A stretch of DNA of 64,000 nt from Maribacter sp. 4G9 (lineage in GTDB: Bacteria; Bacteroidota; Bacteroidia; Flavobacteriales; Flavobacteriaceae), in NCBI RefSeq assembly GCF_002742265.1, contig NZ_MDGL01000065.1:1-64000 (forward strand), read 5' to 3'. Every line of letters starts with the position of its first letter. The first letter of the stretch is position 1. Positions 26,299 through 30,133 of this stretch are shown here, piece after piece. The notes below the pieces were generated by a model, which had not been told where the DNA came from, ran no database searches, and saw nothing but the letters and a program-made list of their open reading frames with translations. Position numbers and translations under genes: made by a program.

Positions 26299-26683
26299 TC
26301 GTAATTTTAATGTTTCTAATTTATTTTAAATACATAAAGAACAGATGTTCAAGTTTGACTTTTACGAAATGACATGGACGAGGGCTAGCACAAAAGATTC
26401 GTTTTTGTCGGAGCAAGATTCTACTCTTTTCTTTATGTAAAGGACAAAGATACTGTATGTTTAATAAAGTACGATTTGCTTTCCAAATTATTTGATAATT
26501 GCCGATAAAAATTGATTTAGGAAATTATATTAATTTTAACATTTTTATAAATAACTCATAATCAAATAGTTATTGATTATTATTTTATATTTAGTACCTT
26601 TTATTACATAGTACTGTAACAAATAGAATGCCTTATCGTCTTCTAGATATAACAATTACTTGTTAATAGTTAGAATTTAAATC
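26299..26683. promoter_or_regulatory. AT-rich intergenic region with likely cold-shock gene leader
   Basis: About 385 bases between the divergent cold-shock gene and the small-gene array. On the minus strand TATCTTTG (26445-26452) fits the -7 element TAnnTTTG; no TTG is found at the expected distance upstream. If used, it gives a leader of about 140 bases for the cold-shock gene, in the range known for cspA-type mRNAs. The right half is very AT-rich and presumably holds the promoter of the small-gene array, but I cannot place it. Confidence 0.35.
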
Positions 26684-26699
26684 ATCATCAATCAATCAA

Positions 26700-26715
26700 C
26701 CCGATGCATATCGGG
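26700..26715 (+). promoter_or_regulatory. Leader hairpin of small gene 1
   Basis: CCCGAT-GCAT-ATCGGG forms a six-pair stem with a four-base loop, 16 bases before the ATG. The spacer (ACAAAAAACGAACAAC) is A-rich and has no Shine-Dalgarno site. The hairpin is conserved in all three units. Confidence 0.7.
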
Positions 26716-26731
26716 ACAAAAAACGAACAAC

Positions 26732-26845
26732 ATGAGAACTTTTATCAGACAATCACCCACGGAAGCCAGAAGACATTCATTCTTCAGCAATTTCAGAAAC
26801 AGTAAACGCGTGCAATGGGCCGAAGTTAGAAACCACACGTATTAA
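26732..26845 (+). CDS. Small basic protein 1 of the tandem array (37 aa)
   Basis: A 37-codon ORF starting MRTFIRQSPTEARRHS and ending VQWAEVRNHTY. I do not recognise the family. The product is strongly basic (about eleven R/K/H residues), without a hydrophobic segment or Cys, so it is probably cytoplasmic and could contact RNA or another acidic partner. The support for translation is the comparison with the second copy: of five base differences in 114, four are synonymous third-position changes and one changes the last residue. A conserved hairpin lies 16 bases before the ATG. The stop codon overlaps TAAGGAG. Confidence 0.65.
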   Translation: MRTFIRQSPTEARRHSFFSNFRNSKRVQWAEVRNHTY

Positions 26846-26857
26846 GGAGCTAGTAAC

Positions 26858-26899
26858 TAGTAGTTAGTAGTTAGTAGTTAGTAGTTAGTAGTTAGTAGT
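26858..26899 (+). repeat. Heptanucleotide repeat TAGTAGT, six units
   Basis: Six perfect copies of TAGTAGT follow small gene 1, preceded by a degenerate unit TAGTAAC and followed by TAGAAAT. The equivalent position after small gene 2 has only two units, so the tract has changed in number since the duplication. Confidence 0.9.
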
Positions 26900-26936
26900 T
26901 AGAAATTAATTCATCAATTCATCATCAATTAATCAA

Positions 26937-26952
26937 CCCGATGCATATCGGG
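26937..26952 (+). promoter_or_regulatory. Leader hairpin of small gene 2
   Basis: Identical to the hairpin of unit 1 (CCCGAT-GCAT-ATCGGG), again exactly 16 bases before the ATG. Confidence 0.7.
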
Positions 26953-26968
26953 ACAAAAAACGAACAAC

Positions 26969-27082
26969 ATGAGAACTTTTATCAGACAATCACCAACGGA
27001 AGCCAGAAGACATTCATTCTTCAGCAATTTCAGAAACAGTAAACGAGTGCAGTGGGCCGAGGTTAGAAACCACACGCATTAA
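26969..27082 (+). CDS. Small basic protein 2 of the tandem array (37 aa)
   Basis: The second 37-codon copy, identical in protein sequence to copy 1 except for the last residue (His instead of Tyr). The synonymous differences are CCC/CCA (Pro9), CGC/CGA (Arg26), CAA/CAG (Gln28) and GAA/GAG (Glu31). Such a pattern is expected when a duplicated gene is kept under selection for its protein product. Function unknown. As in copy 1, the stop codon overlaps TAAGGAG and is followed by TAGTAGT heptamers. Confidence 0.65.
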   Translation: MRTFIRQSPTEARRHSFFSNFRNSKRVQWAEVRNHTH

Positions 27083-27094
27083 GGAGCTAGCAAC

Positions 27095-27108
27095 TAGTAG
27101 TTAGTAGT
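27095..27108 (+). repeat. Heptanucleotide repeat TAGTAGT, two units
   Basis: Two copies of TAGTAGT after small gene 2, flanked by the degenerate unit TAGCAAC on the left and TAGAAAT on the right, exactly parallel to the six-unit tract after small gene 1. Confidence 0.85.
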
Positions 27109-27142
27109 TAGAAATTCATTCAATTCATCATCAATTAATCAA

Positions 27143-27158
27143 CCCGATGCATTTCGGG
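27143..27158 (+). promoter_or_regulatory. Leader hairpin of small gene 3
   Basis: CCCGA-TGCATT-TCGGG keeps the five outer pairs of the stem although one inner base has changed. It lies 18 bases before the ATG of unit 3. Confidence 0.65.
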
Positions 27159-27176
27159 ACAATAAAAACGAACAAC

Positions 27177-27275
27177 ATGAGAACTTTTATCAAACATTCA
27201 ATAACCGAAGCAAAAGGACTGACCAAAGGTAAAGTACGTTGGGTAGCTGCCAAGGAGGTAATGGCCTTGATATAG
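27177..27275 (+). CDS. Small basic protein 3 of the tandem array, diverged (32 aa)
   Basis: A 32-codon ORF. It keeps the N-terminus of the family (MRTFI-K-H-S-I-T-E-A-K versus MRTFI-R-Q-S-P-T-E-A-R) and a K-x-V-x-W core, but has a different C-terminal half ending in A-K-E-V-M-A-L-I. The K-E-V codons contain AAGGAGGT, a perfect anti-16S match that occupies the place of the AAGGAG after the stops of copies 1 and 2. Function unknown; followed directly by a terminator, so the three genes probably form one transcript. Confidence 0.6.
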   Translation: MRTFIKHSITEAKGLTKGKVRWVAAKEVMALI

Positions 27276-27292
27276 GGAAATCAAGAAAACAA

Positions 27293-27325
27293 AAAAGGAT
27301 AAGACCTCATCAATCTTATCCTTTT
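27293..27325. terminator. Bidirectional intrinsic terminator after the small-gene array
   Basis: The arms AAAAGGATAAG (27293-27303) and CTTATCCTTTT (27315-27325) are perfectly complementary, with A- and T-rich flanks on both sides. It lies between the small-gene array and the convergent lipoprotein gene. Confidence 0.8.
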
Positions 27326-27355: not shown

Positions 27356-28147
27356 TTAATCACGCAAGGTAATCTCCTCTTCTACTCCATTCGGATAGGT
27401 TATAGTAGCAACATTATCACACGTACTATCGCCAAAGTCAACATTTACGGTAAGACCATTTTTGGAAACCGACATGTCCCCAGCGGCTATATATCCACAG
27501 GAAACACTGCTGGTCAAGGGAGCGTTCACGGTTACGTTATACGTATTTCCATCATAAACAACGGTCCAGGTTCCAGCAATACTGTAAGTTGTCGAATCAA
27601 GTGAATCACCAAAAGTCAGGGTAAATGACCTGGTACCTGCGTCGGAAATTTCGGAGCCATCCGCCATTTCAACCGTAAGATCACTTGTTACCTCAAAAGA
27701 GACGCTACCCGTCTCACCATTGGTACTTAACTGATAAGATCTAGTGCCGTTGATTTTGATTTCGCCTACGTAAAAATCGACATAGCTAGCGGAAAATGAA
27801 CCTTGCTCGCCGTCGGTGTCATAGGTTACCGTCAAGGTGCCGTTAATGTTCTCGGTACCATTCAGGACACAATTGTTAAATGTGGCCACATATCCCGTAT
27901 CCGTATACTGGGCACTATAACACTCGTTCACCATGGTTTTCCCCGTGCTACTTCCATTGTTGTAAAGTTCGAACAGGGCGACATCGATTCCGCCAGTAAT
28001 TTCGTCTGTTTCCAGTACGGCCTCAATTTCCGCTTGGGAAAGGACAATGTTGGTATCTTTATCGGTATCCTTGCTACAGCTATAGGCAAAGACCATTACA
28101 GTGGCCATAAGGCTTACATTTTTTATTGTGCTTTTCAAAATATTCAT
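27356..28147 (-). CDS. Beta-rich lipoprotein of unknown function
   Basis: A 263-residue lipoprotein: signal peptide with lipobox F-A-Y-S-C at Cys24, followed by an acidic S-K-D-T-D-K-D-T linker. The rest is rich in T, G, S, N and D and alternates hydrophobic residues, as in all-beta domains; there are repeated G-T/S-x-[SF]-[FV]-x-[VY] strands. Four further cysteines could form disulfides. No family assigned with confidence. It is divergent from the GntR regulator gene, which may control it. Confidence 0.65.
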   Translation of the reverse strand: MNILKSTIKNVSLMATVMVFAYSCSKDTDKDTNIVLSQAEIEAVLETDEITGGIDVALFELYNNGSSTGKTMVNECYSAQYTDTGYVATFNNCVLNGTENINGTLTVTYDTDGEQGSFSASYVDFYVGEIKINGTRSYQLSTNGETGSVSFEVTSDLTVEMADGSEISDAGTRSFTLTFGDSLDSTTYSIAGTWTVVYDGNTYNVTVNAPLTSSVSCGYIAAGDMSVSKNGLTVNVDFGDSTCDNVATITYPNGVEEEITLRD

Positions 28148-29037: not shown

Positions 29038-29640
29038 TCATTCCTCCAAGTCCCTCAAAAGCGTTTCGGCAGAATTTGTTAGTTTTTTATAGCTTCTGTA
29101 ACCCCAGCGGCTTACGAATACCATTAGAAGTAATACAAATACTATGGCCATTCCCTGTTCAGGTCTAAGTTGCGAAAGAATCAAAGTCTTGTCCCTGAGT
29201 AGCTTTAAGGCAAGGGCCGGCGTGAACAGTACGGATAAAAAGCTAACAAAAATCGCAATTTGTTGCAGTTGTAATAGCCTGTTTTTTTCCTTGGTATATC
29301 TGATTAGGTTTTCCTTATAAGATCCCTGCAGAATATCCAAGTTTCTTATCCTTTTCAGGGCACGCAATACCAAAGTAGGGAGCACTGTTAAAAAAGCGAT
29401 GGTTAAAACACCGGAAAGCTTAAGATACAATGTATCCAATTTCCCAAAATTAAGCACTATAAAACCTGTCAGGATATAACATATGACAGCCCCTACGGTC
29501 TCGTAATTAGTGAGTTTACTGAATTTGTTCCGATAATTGTTCCGGGTCATTTTTACAATGATTTCGTTCGTTAATTTTTTTTGATTTTCCAATTCCTGGC
29601 TCATGGCCACCCAATTGGCCTGTAGTTCCTCTAATTCCAT
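29038..29640 (-). CDS. Membrane partner protein of the ECF sigma factor
   Basis: A 200-residue protein from the ATG at 29640, four bases after the sigma factor gene ends. The first 60 residues are cytosolic and helical, followed by four hydrophobic segments (about 65-85, 90-110, 140-158 and 165-185) and a short charged tail. Position and layout fit an anti-sigma factor, but there is no zinc-finger (HxxxCxxC) anti-sigma motif; it is unlike the FecR group too. I regard it as a probable membrane regulator of the adjacent sigma factor, unproven. Confidence 0.6.
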   Translation of the reverse strand: MELEELQANWVAMSQELENQKKLTNEIIVKMTRNNYRNKFSKLTNYETVGAVICYILTGFIVLNFGKLDTLYLKLSGVLTIAFLTVLPTLVLRALKRIRNLDILQGSYKENLIRYTKEKNRLLQLQQIAIFVSFLSVLFTPALALKLLRDKTLILSQLRPEQGMAIVFVLLLMVFVSRWGYRSYKKLTNSAETLLRDLEE

Positions 29641-29644
29641 CTTC

Positions 29645-30133
29645 CTAAGATTTAACCATGTTCTTTCTAAGTTTTTCCTTGATGCGGGATATCCTGGTTC
29701 CAACATTGGACGGATTTAAACCAGTGATTTCAGCAATTTCCTGATAGGGTTTTTCCTCGAGAAGCAAAAGCATGATGCCCCGTTCCAAAGTGTTCAGTTG
29801 TTTTATATGCCGATGAAGTAACCGGAGTCGTTCCTCCAAAACCTCGTCCTTATTTTCCGAAGCGTGTAATAGGGAGTCCGAAATAGGTTCGGTATGGGGA
29901 TTCCGTTTTGACTTTTTTAAATGGGTTATGGCCGTATTCATCGCTACCCTATACATCCAGGTCGTGATTTTGGATTCATTTCTAAATGTGTCAAAATACT
30001 TCCATAATTGATACACCACATCCTGAAACAAATCCTCCCGATCTTGTTCGTTATTGGTGTAGATAGCGGTGACCTTGTAGAGAAGTCCCTGGTGTTCCCG
30101 TATCAAATCCGCAAATTCGTCACTATTCCGCAT
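29645..30133 (-). CDS. ECF-type RNA polymerase sigma factor
   Basis: A 162-residue sigma-70 family protein with regions 2 and 4 only. Region 2 contains D-L-F-Q-D-V-V-Y-Q-L-W-K and T-W-M-Y-R-V-A-M-N-T-A; region 4 contains Y-Q-E-I-A-E-I-T-G-L-N-P-S-N-V-G-T-R-I-S-R-I-K-E-K-L. The product would direct RNA polymerase to a dedicated promoter set. It is followed immediately by a membrane protein that may act as its regulator. The regulon is unknown. Confidence 0.9.
   Translation of the reverse strand: MRNSDEFADLIREHQGLLYKVTAIYTNNEQDREDLFQDVVYQLWKYFDTFRNESKITTWMYRVAMNTAITHLKKSKRNPHTEPISDSLLHASENKDEVLEERLRLLHRHIKQLNTLERGIMLLLLEEKPYQEIAEITGLNPSNVGTRISRIKEKLRKNMVKS

What the first reader, a model, noticed from the sequence alone, without database searches (positions are those of the whole stretch)
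26684..27275. Tandem array of three hairpin-led micro-genes under coding selection
Three units repeat the same architecture: CCCGA/TCGGG hairpin, A-rich 16-18 base spacer, ATG, 32-37 codon ORF. ORFs 1 and 2 differ at five of 114 bases; four changes are synonymous and one changes only the last residue, which is what purifying selection on a protein gives and not what a neutral duplicate gives. ORF 3 keeps the first twelve positions and a K-x-V-x-W core. The product is a strongly basic peptide of unknown type. A conserved hairpin at a fixed distance before each start suggests shared post-transcriptional control. Basis: the repeats and substitutions are read directly; function is inference.
Basis: partly seen in the sequence, partly recalled or inferred. 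Interest (0 to 1): 0.8.

Follow-up and report, generated by a model that had tools for sequence, protein, structure and literature searches.

The report
Tandem basic microprotein operon in flavobacteria
A stretch of marine-bacterium DNA carries three back-to-back genes for tiny, positively charged proteins behind a very specific on-switch; versions of the same set-up turn up across much of the flavobacterial family, fit no known protein family we could find, and have an unknown job.

Summary
The three micro-genes are real. The genome belongs with Maribacter. The peptide (37, 37, 32 aa) has relatives in 35 of 36 genomes of the genus, own included, and in 62 of 397 Flavobacteriaceae genomes (54 below E 1e-5); 87 of 106 arrays hold two or more copies. 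Coding selection is strong: pN/pS 0.12 over 109 close within-array pairs, ML omega 0.08. No Pfam, NCBIfam, PHROG, PADLOC, Rfam or PDB family fits.

AGTACTGTAAC-N16-CGTC, ECF-sigma-like, occurs once in this genome (26610-26640), before 79 of 102 arrays and in 160 of 397 family genomes. Where I sampled other genera, it mostly precedes 28-aa basic peptides (35 of 41 sites, two or more copies at 24), often with a ~44-aa last peptide. The types share a C-terminal W-x3-[RK]-[RN]-aromatic signature; 17 of 40 such loci keep the window's helicase neighbour.

The hairpin is lineage-specific and resembles a palindrome dispersed in the genome, though a sister clade shows a covarying one.

Best reading: a stand-alone, alternative-sigma-type operon giving high doses of basic microproteins, perhaps RNA- or ribosome-binding. 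That last step is inference.

The parts
26592..26640 (+). Conserved promoter: upstream element TAGTACC..CATAGTACT, -35-like GTAAC (26616-26620), 16-nt spacer, -10-like CGTC (26637-26640)
   Evidence: Only match of GTACTGTAACN{14,18}CGTCT in the 4.6-Mb genome, reversed control 0; found (up to 2 mismatches in AGTACTGTAAC) within 450 nt upstream of 79 of 102 arrays of the 37-aa family, spacer 16 in 79 of 79
26700..26715 (+). Hairpin CCCGATGCATATCGGG before unit 1
   Evidence: resembles a palindrome dispersed in the genome
26732..26845 (+). Unit 1: 37-aa basic microprotein MRTFIRQSPTEARRHSFFSNFRNSKRVQWAEVRNHTY
26859..26902 (+). Head-to-tail AGTAGTT heptamers (six and a part) in the spacer between units 1 and 2; two copies at 27096-27109
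26937..26952 (+). Hairpin CCCGATGCATATCGGG before unit 2
26969..27082 (+). Unit 2: 37-aa basic microprotein, identical to unit 1 except Y37H
27143..27158 (+). Hairpin CCCGATGCATTTCGGG before unit 3
27177..27275 (+). Unit 3: divergent terminal paralogue, 32 aa (MRTFIKHSITEAKGLTKGKVRWVAAKEVMALI)
   Evidence: the last unit is the odd one out in 36 of 56 arrays of three or more units
27293..27325 (.). Terminator-like stem-loop between the array and the convergent gene 27356-28147
   Evidence: -13.5 kcal/mol, z -2.9, 3 of 200 shuffles fold as well; the scan lists it on the minus strand only

Best explanation
26592-27325 is a stand-alone operon of tandem genes for small basic proteins. SHOWN by sequence: (1) the ORFs are under purifying selection as proteins; (2) an almost invariant element with the form of an ECF-sigma promoter (GTAAC, exactly 16 nt, CGTC) precedes this and most other arrays examined; (3) start sites carry the A-rich context that goes with efficient initiation in Flavobacterium johnsoniae; (4) arrays hold 1-5 detected cistrons, and the last is often divergent; (5) in other genera the same element, at 17 of 40 loci near the same helicase gene, mostly precedes 28-aa basic peptides, often two or more, followed in many by a ~44-aa peptide, with a common C-terminal W-x3-[RK]-[RN]-aromatic signature. 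INFERRED: an alternative sigma factor switches the operon on under a stress or starvation signal; tandem cistrons and strong starts give many copies of the peptide; and the peptide (net charge mostly +5 to +7, Trp/Tyr/Phe set among Arg/Lys) binds an anionic target, most likely the ribosome or another RNA.
For: Homologues in 35 of 36 genomes of the genus, own included, and 62 of 397 family genomes at E<=0.01, of which 54 are below 1e-5. pN/pS 0.12 over 109 within-array pairs less than 15% different; ML omega 0.081 at the last fit (0.11 at the first) on 104 distinct sequences (fit, log read); 28-aa peptides pN/pS 0.22 over 36 pairs. Promoter: one site in the own genome; 160 of 397 family genomes, against 9 reversed-control hits in all by my count of the table; 79 of 102 arrays against 2 of 2330 random 450-nt windows away from the arrays, both with spacer 15 (the control, 74 of 2040, included the arrays' own promoters). 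45 of the 62 genomes are promoter-positive, against 115 of the other 335 (my tally). Of 41 sites in 40 loci that I picked from the listed sites of other genera, 35 have a 28-aa-type peptide within 750 nt and 24 have two or more, against 4 of 1723 random windows (one search had counted 25 because it counted nested starts). Window neighbours recur there: helicase in 17 of 40, CSD gene in 9, EamA transporter in 5. Start context of 273 units: A at -11/-12/-13 in 95/94/89%, purine at -3 in 98%; passages of PMC6847099 name A at -3, -6, -12 and -13 as positive determinants. A CGT box at -10 is read as ECF-type in F. psychrophilum, with low-nutrient induction of that promoter class (PMC9723704).
Against: No expression or translation data. 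The sigma factor is not identified: the ECF gene about 2.4 kb downstream (29645-30133) recurs mainly as local synteny, and only 2 of 40 promoter loci hold a relative, at 22% identity. 23 of 102 arrays lack the promoter, 11 of them at a locus with an AraC-type neighbour. Six of 41 promoter sites have no 28-aa-type peptide by the motif: one has four 29-aa copies of another peptide, one a single 48-aa ORF, two sites of one locus a longer secreted-looking protein, one an RNA-like stretch with a terminator, one a longer reading frame that looks like an ABC ATPase. A few sites have spacer 15 or 17 and look like chance. The ~44-aa peptide is met by the motif at only 14 of 41 sites. The downstream neighbours of the window's array (27356-28147, GntR gene) gave no hit in the 40 loci, and the pseudouridine-synthase-like gene only 2. 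Homology between the 37-, 28- and 44-aa types is only suggestive by profile (P 0.0006-0.012, probability 4-29%). The AlphaFold model is low-confidence (pLDDT 65). RNA or ribosome binding is argued from composition alone; an ExbD-like gene lies on the same strand in 19 of 40 loci of the 28-aa type, which could point to the envelope instead.
Confidence: 0.48

Rival explanations
1. The transcript acts as regulatory RNA; the ORFs are secondary (dual-function RNA).
For: Stand-alone short transcription unit; one promoter site (L322) is followed by a terminator-like stretch without an ORF of the family; in F. psychrophilum an sRNA, Rfp11, is listed among the ECF-like SM6 promoters (PMC9723704 section 15); a covarying hairpin exists in one sub-clade.
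Against: Omega 0.08 and few stops show that the protein is selected. Spacers differ between genera, and many fold weakly or not at all (output partly cut). No Rfam match in the window.
Confidence: 0.12
2. Type I toxin-like genes: multi-copy small toxic peptides repressed by antisense RNA, as in the ldr or ibs repeats of E. coli (recalled).
For: Small size, tandem copies, stand-alone units.
Against: Two tested 37-aa members are hydrophilic (GRAVY -1.29, -1.26; unit 3 is +0.13); 6 of 278 units have a primary-sigma-like site on the opposite strand (no control run); no plasmid or phage match of a composed family peptide; gene neighbourhood partly kept between genera.
Confidence: 0.08
3. Exported or envelope-acting peptides (antimicrobial, signal, or linked to ExbD-type machinery).
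For: Cationic, aromatic-rich short peptides in several copies resemble antimicrobial peptides in composition. An ExbD-like gene lies on the same strand in 19 of 40 loci of the 28-aa type, mostly 320-560 nt after the promoter.
Against: No signal or double-glycine leader by eye. No exporter or immunity gene was seen recurring beside the 37-aa arrays (read by eye; one search was cut). The ExbD gene is not among the recurrent neighbours shown for the 37-aa arrays. Present in 35 of 36 genomes of a genus, unlike typical bacteriocins (recalled).
Confidence: 0.15
4. Neutral tandem duplicates with chance ORFs.
For: Copies are close repeats, and arrays partly homogenise: the nearest copy is in the same array for 41 of 79 units, 7 ties, 31 nearer in another genome.
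Against: The frame and peptide persist through large nucleotide divergence with omega 0.08 and across many genera.
Confidence: 0.01

Closest known systems
SM6 (ECF-sigma type) promoters of Flavobacterium psychrophilum, including sRNA Rfp11 (PMC9723704; abstract, section 15 part 1 and passages seen)
   Same: CGT box at -10 read as ECF-type; one target is a small stand-alone transcript conserved in other species
   Different: The SM6 list is a broad regulon (T9SS genes, Band-7 proteins). Here the fuller motif with the AGTACT extension is rare (0-3 per genome) and, where looked at, mostly precedes microgenes. Rfp11 was listed as a putative regulatory RNA; its sequence could not be read here, so identity is untested.
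Multi-copy small-protein repeats of E. coli (ldr/rdl, ibs/sib; recalled)
   Same: Short ORFs in tandem or multi-copy units
   Different: Those are hydrophobic toxins with antisense RNAs (recalled); the two 37-aa members tested are hydrophilic and basic, and the arrays share a dedicated promoter.
Small basic ribosome-associated or ribosomal proteins (such as Sra or bL34; recalled)
   Same: Size, charge and Arg/Lys/aromatic make-up
   Different: No convincing sequence match in the PDB set (best E 0.03, to unrelated proteins).
Dispersed palindrome CCCGATAGCTATCGGG of the same genome (REP-like, label mine)
   Same: Same stem as the hairpin before each unit
   Different: Different loop; the array copies sit at a fixed place before ATG and appear to have multiplied with the units.

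Membership tests
Protein-coding gene under selection | Ratio of amino-acid-changing to silent change well below 1 | tested here: met
   pN/pS 0.12, omega 0.081
Protein-coding gene under selection | Observed translation | not testable with these tools
   no ribosome profiling or proteomics at hand
ECF-sigma-dependent promoter | -35 GTAAC-type and -10 CGTC-type boxes at fixed spacing | tested here: met
   spacer 16 in 79 of 79 arrays with the motif and 41 of 41 sites in the loci picked, though a few listed sites have 15 or 17; that such boxes mean ECF is recalled and, for the CGT box, from PMC9723704
ECF-sigma-dependent promoter | Cognate sigma factor known or linked | tested here: inconclusive
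   ECF gene near the array in Maribacter, but only 2 relatives at 22% identity in 40 promoter loci
Type I toxin-antitoxin | Hydrophobic toxin peptide | tested here: not met
   GRAVY -1.29 and -1.26 for two 37-aa members; unit 3 is +0.13
Type I toxin-antitoxin | Antisense RNA promoter | tested here: inconclusive
   6 of 278 units with a primary-sigma-like site on the opposite strand; consensus scan, no control
Bacteriocin or exported peptide | Linked exporter, processing or immunity genes | tested here: inconclusive
   none seen recurring by eye beside the 37-aa arrays (the latter cut); ExbD-like gene near 19 of 40 28-aa loci
Regulatory RNA family in Rfam | Match to a covariance model | tested here: not met
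   (window only)
Conserved hairpin as shared control element | Present before every unit across relatives | tested here: not met
   lineage-specific
Conserved hairpin as shared control element | Compensatory change in the stem | tested here: met
   sister Maribacter clade only: 23 distinct cores, 17 double-change cells against 4.6 shuffled, 0 of 500 shuffles. Cores were picked by a TAATCA-type loop, found in 36 of 37 internal units
Known protein family | Match in Pfam, NCBIfam, PHROGs, PADLOC or PDB | tested here: not met
   only isolated hits with E 0.03 or above. Not every library was run on every peptide type

The most novel reading that the evidence does not exclude
A family-wide flavobacterial stress system: one to a few dedicated alternative-sigma-type promoters per genome drive a dosage cassette of nearly identical microproteins plus a divergent last one. 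The peptide type turns over between genera (28, 29, 37 aa) while promoter, tandem layout, often the locus, and (for the 28-, 37- and 44-aa types) the C-terminal W-x3-[RK]-[RN]-aromatic signature stay. It would be a new class of abundant RNA- or ribosome-binding microproteins missing from the family libraries.
Probability: 0.35. Interest if true: 0.88.

Novelty: new variant of a known kind. Interest (0 to 1): 0.74.

Why it matters
If right, a large family of marine bacteria carries a strongly conserved, strongly selected and probably well-expressed protein system absent from the protein-family libraries searched. The rare promoter makes it directly testable: in a genome with a single site, one deletion removes the whole cassette, and the promoter gives a handle for finding the sigma factor and the inducing signal. 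It also shows how small tandem genes can be found by their promoter when sequence similarity fails.

Tried and rejected
Hairpin as the key element: rejected as the shared feature, kept as a lineage-specific structure. The neighbouring ECF gene as cognate regulator: not supported outside the Maribacter-type locus. Cold-shock link through the CSD gene: of 80 named loci around that gene, 20 have units within 4 kb and 60 do not, among them several labelled Maribacter (some at contig ends); many arrays lie elsewhere. Mobile element: no phage or plasmid match. Spread beyond Flavobacteriaceae: phylum draw 7 of 395 and order draw 10 of 296 genomes at E<=0.01; the two and four genomes outside the family have E above 0.001. 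The promoter pattern gave 10 of 226 in an order draw, 1 of the 190 genomes outside the family, at spacer 17, read as chance. Primary-sigma TAnnTTTG box upstream of units: 3 of 275 against 66 of 1390 random windows. Structure: AF2 two helices, pLDDT 65, not used for a fold search. Prior description: none recognised in the listings of paper searches.

Full report
Observation. The three ORFs, their spacing, the three palindromes and the five substitutions are as described, apart from two small misreadings in ORF 3 (9 of the first 12 residues kept; the core is GKVRW). The window has no tRNA gene and no Rfam match.

Identity of the genome. Named contigs closest to the window's cold-shock-domain (CSD) gene are mostly Maribacter; 20 of the 80 named loci fetched around that gene have units of the peptide within 4 kb, 60 do not.

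Family. One window peptide finds homologues in 35 of 36 genomes of the genus (own included); among 24 genomes outside the genus it finds two chance-level hits, E 0.59 and 0.95. A profile of 31 members finds 62 of 397 Flavobacteriaceae genomes, 40 of 237 genera, at E<=0.01; 54 genomes are below 1e-5, and five of the rest (E 0.003-0.01) are what chance could give. In 110 loci fetched from these two lists there are 278 units, in 106 arrays of 1 to 5 detected cistrons; 87 arrays have two or more. In 36 of the 56 arrays with three or more units the last unit is under 60% identical to every other and less alike than any other pair, as in the window. Length is 37 aa in 218 of 273 units, net charge +5 to +7 in 244 of 273. 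Profile consensus: MKxxxxxTPTESRxxxxFSNFKxSKRVRWxExRNYxx.

Selection. Within arrays, 109 pairs less than 15% different give pS 0.196 and pN 0.024; ML omega on 104 distinct sequences is 0.081 at the last fit. Pairs are not independent, and gene conversion may shrink both values.

Expression signals. Start sites show A at -13 to -11 in 89-95% and purine at -3 in 98% of 273 units, the pattern that PMC6847099 reports as promoting initiation in F. johnsoniae (passages seen). A terminator-like stem lies after ORF 3. Reading upstream of first units showed a nearly invariant element, TAGTACCTTTTTATACATAGTACTGTAACA-N-CGTCT. It is unique in the window's genome and precedes 79 of 102 arrays with a spacer of exactly 16 although 14 to 18 was allowed; 48 of 60 arrays outside the GTDB genus have it. 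Away from arrays it is met in 2 of 2330 random 450-nt windows of the same loci, both with spacer 15. PMC9723704 (abstract, section 15 part 1 and passages seen) describes a promoter class with a CGT box, read as ECF-type and induced under low nutrients, in a related fish pathogen.

The wider system. The strict motif occurs in 160 of 397 family genomes and 111 of 237 genera; the reversed control has 9 hits in all by my count. In loci of other genera that I picked from the listed sites, the motif precedes copies of a 28-aa peptide MRTLNxNQLTxxxxxSKSYxWNxKRRYR and in many a ~44-aa peptide ending IWxGTKRYAH. By a motif count, 35 of 41 promoters in 40 loci have a 28-aa-type peptide, 24 have at least two, 14 have the longer type; 4 of 1723 random windows have a 28-aa-type match. 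The six others are described under evidence against. The window's helicase, CSD and EamA transporter relatives recur there in 17, 9 and 5 of 40 loci, 60-75% identical, while its downstream neighbours do not; so the 28-aa and 37-aa arrays may descend from one ancestral locus. An ExbD-like gene follows on the same strand in 19 of 40 loci. The C-termini align without gaps around one Trp (W, +4 R/K, +5 R/N, +6 aromatic or His), but profile comparison gives only suggestive values.

Hairpins. CCCGA-N6-TCGGG occurs at 15 places in the genome, 3 in the array; the reversed control gives 0. In a sister Maribacter clade the same place holds a stem of changing sequence around a nearly constant loop: TCGG/CCGA, ACGG/CCGT, AGGG/CCCT, GGAG/CTCC, CTG/CAG. 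On 23 distinct cores, picked by the loop, 85.9% of cells pair (69.3% shuffled), 17 cells have double changes (4.6 shuffled), and slid structures fall to 20-54%. In another unit type the same CTAATCA loop sits on the stop codon. So a hairpin between cistrons is sometimes selected, possibly for processing or insulation, but it is not universal.

Mechanism. The best reading is a dosage cassette: an alternative-sigma-type promoter switches on an mRNA that carries several copies of one strongly initiated microprotein. The peptide's composition points to an anionic partner; ribosome or RNA is my guess. AlphaFold gives two helices at low confidence. No convincing match in Pfam, NCBIfam, PHROGs, PADLOC or the PDB helps.

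Limits. No expression data, unknown sigma factor, genomes unnamed, motif counts partly by simple rules, loci picked from capped lists. GMSC (PMC11364881; start of abstract and two passages seen) may already contain these ORFs as anonymous entries; not tested.

Counts were recomputed. Confidence in the best explanation was lowered from 0.50 to 0.48 and that of the envelope rival raised from 0.12 to 0.15 because of the ExbD neighbour.

Noticed in passing
L295 and L305 downstream of the promoter; upstream of several other arrays: A second microprotein type in the same operons, e.g. METLPQYLQRPRIHFRIGFGWNTDRLYDLKIKNRKTIKN, with an RP-[RK]-I-x-F then GW-x-TDR core.
   Followed up: partly
L069-L076, L125, L150, L171: A second array locus lacks the ECF-like promoter and has a divergent gene for a protein that looks like an AraC-type regulator with a TPR-like part, at a constant 234-237 nt.
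   Followed up: partly
L067, L077, L113, L135, L141, L162 and others: Hairpin aatcgCTAATCAcgatt or accgCTAATCAcggt has the stop codon of the unit in its loop; the loop equals that of the intergenic hairpin of a Maribacter sub-clade.
   Followed up: partly
L307-L346 (19 of 40 loci): An ExbD-family gene lies on the same strand, mostly 320-560 nt after the promoter of 28-aa arrays; a minus-strand gene of no Pfam family lies about 200 nt upstream in most of the 25 loci that have it.
   Followed up: partly
L322 (promoter site at G158:C1:1180468): The ECF-like promoter is followed by roughly 110 nt with no family ORF that end in a terminator-like stem and T run: an sRNA-like unit.
   Followed up: no
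L138 and L139, last units: An in-frame insertion (TGQAGQ) near the start of the peptide, looking like a short repeat inserted in the ORF.
   Followed up: no
window 29038-30133, minus strand: ECF sigma factor gene (Sigma70_r2 and r4_2) overlapping a gene for a membrane-protein-like product with no Pfam match, a possible anti-sigma partner.
   Followed up: partly
G004, G015, G018, G031 contig ends: Several draft assemblies break inside these arrays, so copy numbers in drafts are lower bounds.
   Followed up: no
L333: Four copies of another peptide, MRTSSETKNRKQFMNSEATSLGYFKRRIA (one residue differs in the fourth), behind the same promoter: a further peptide type.
   Followed up: no
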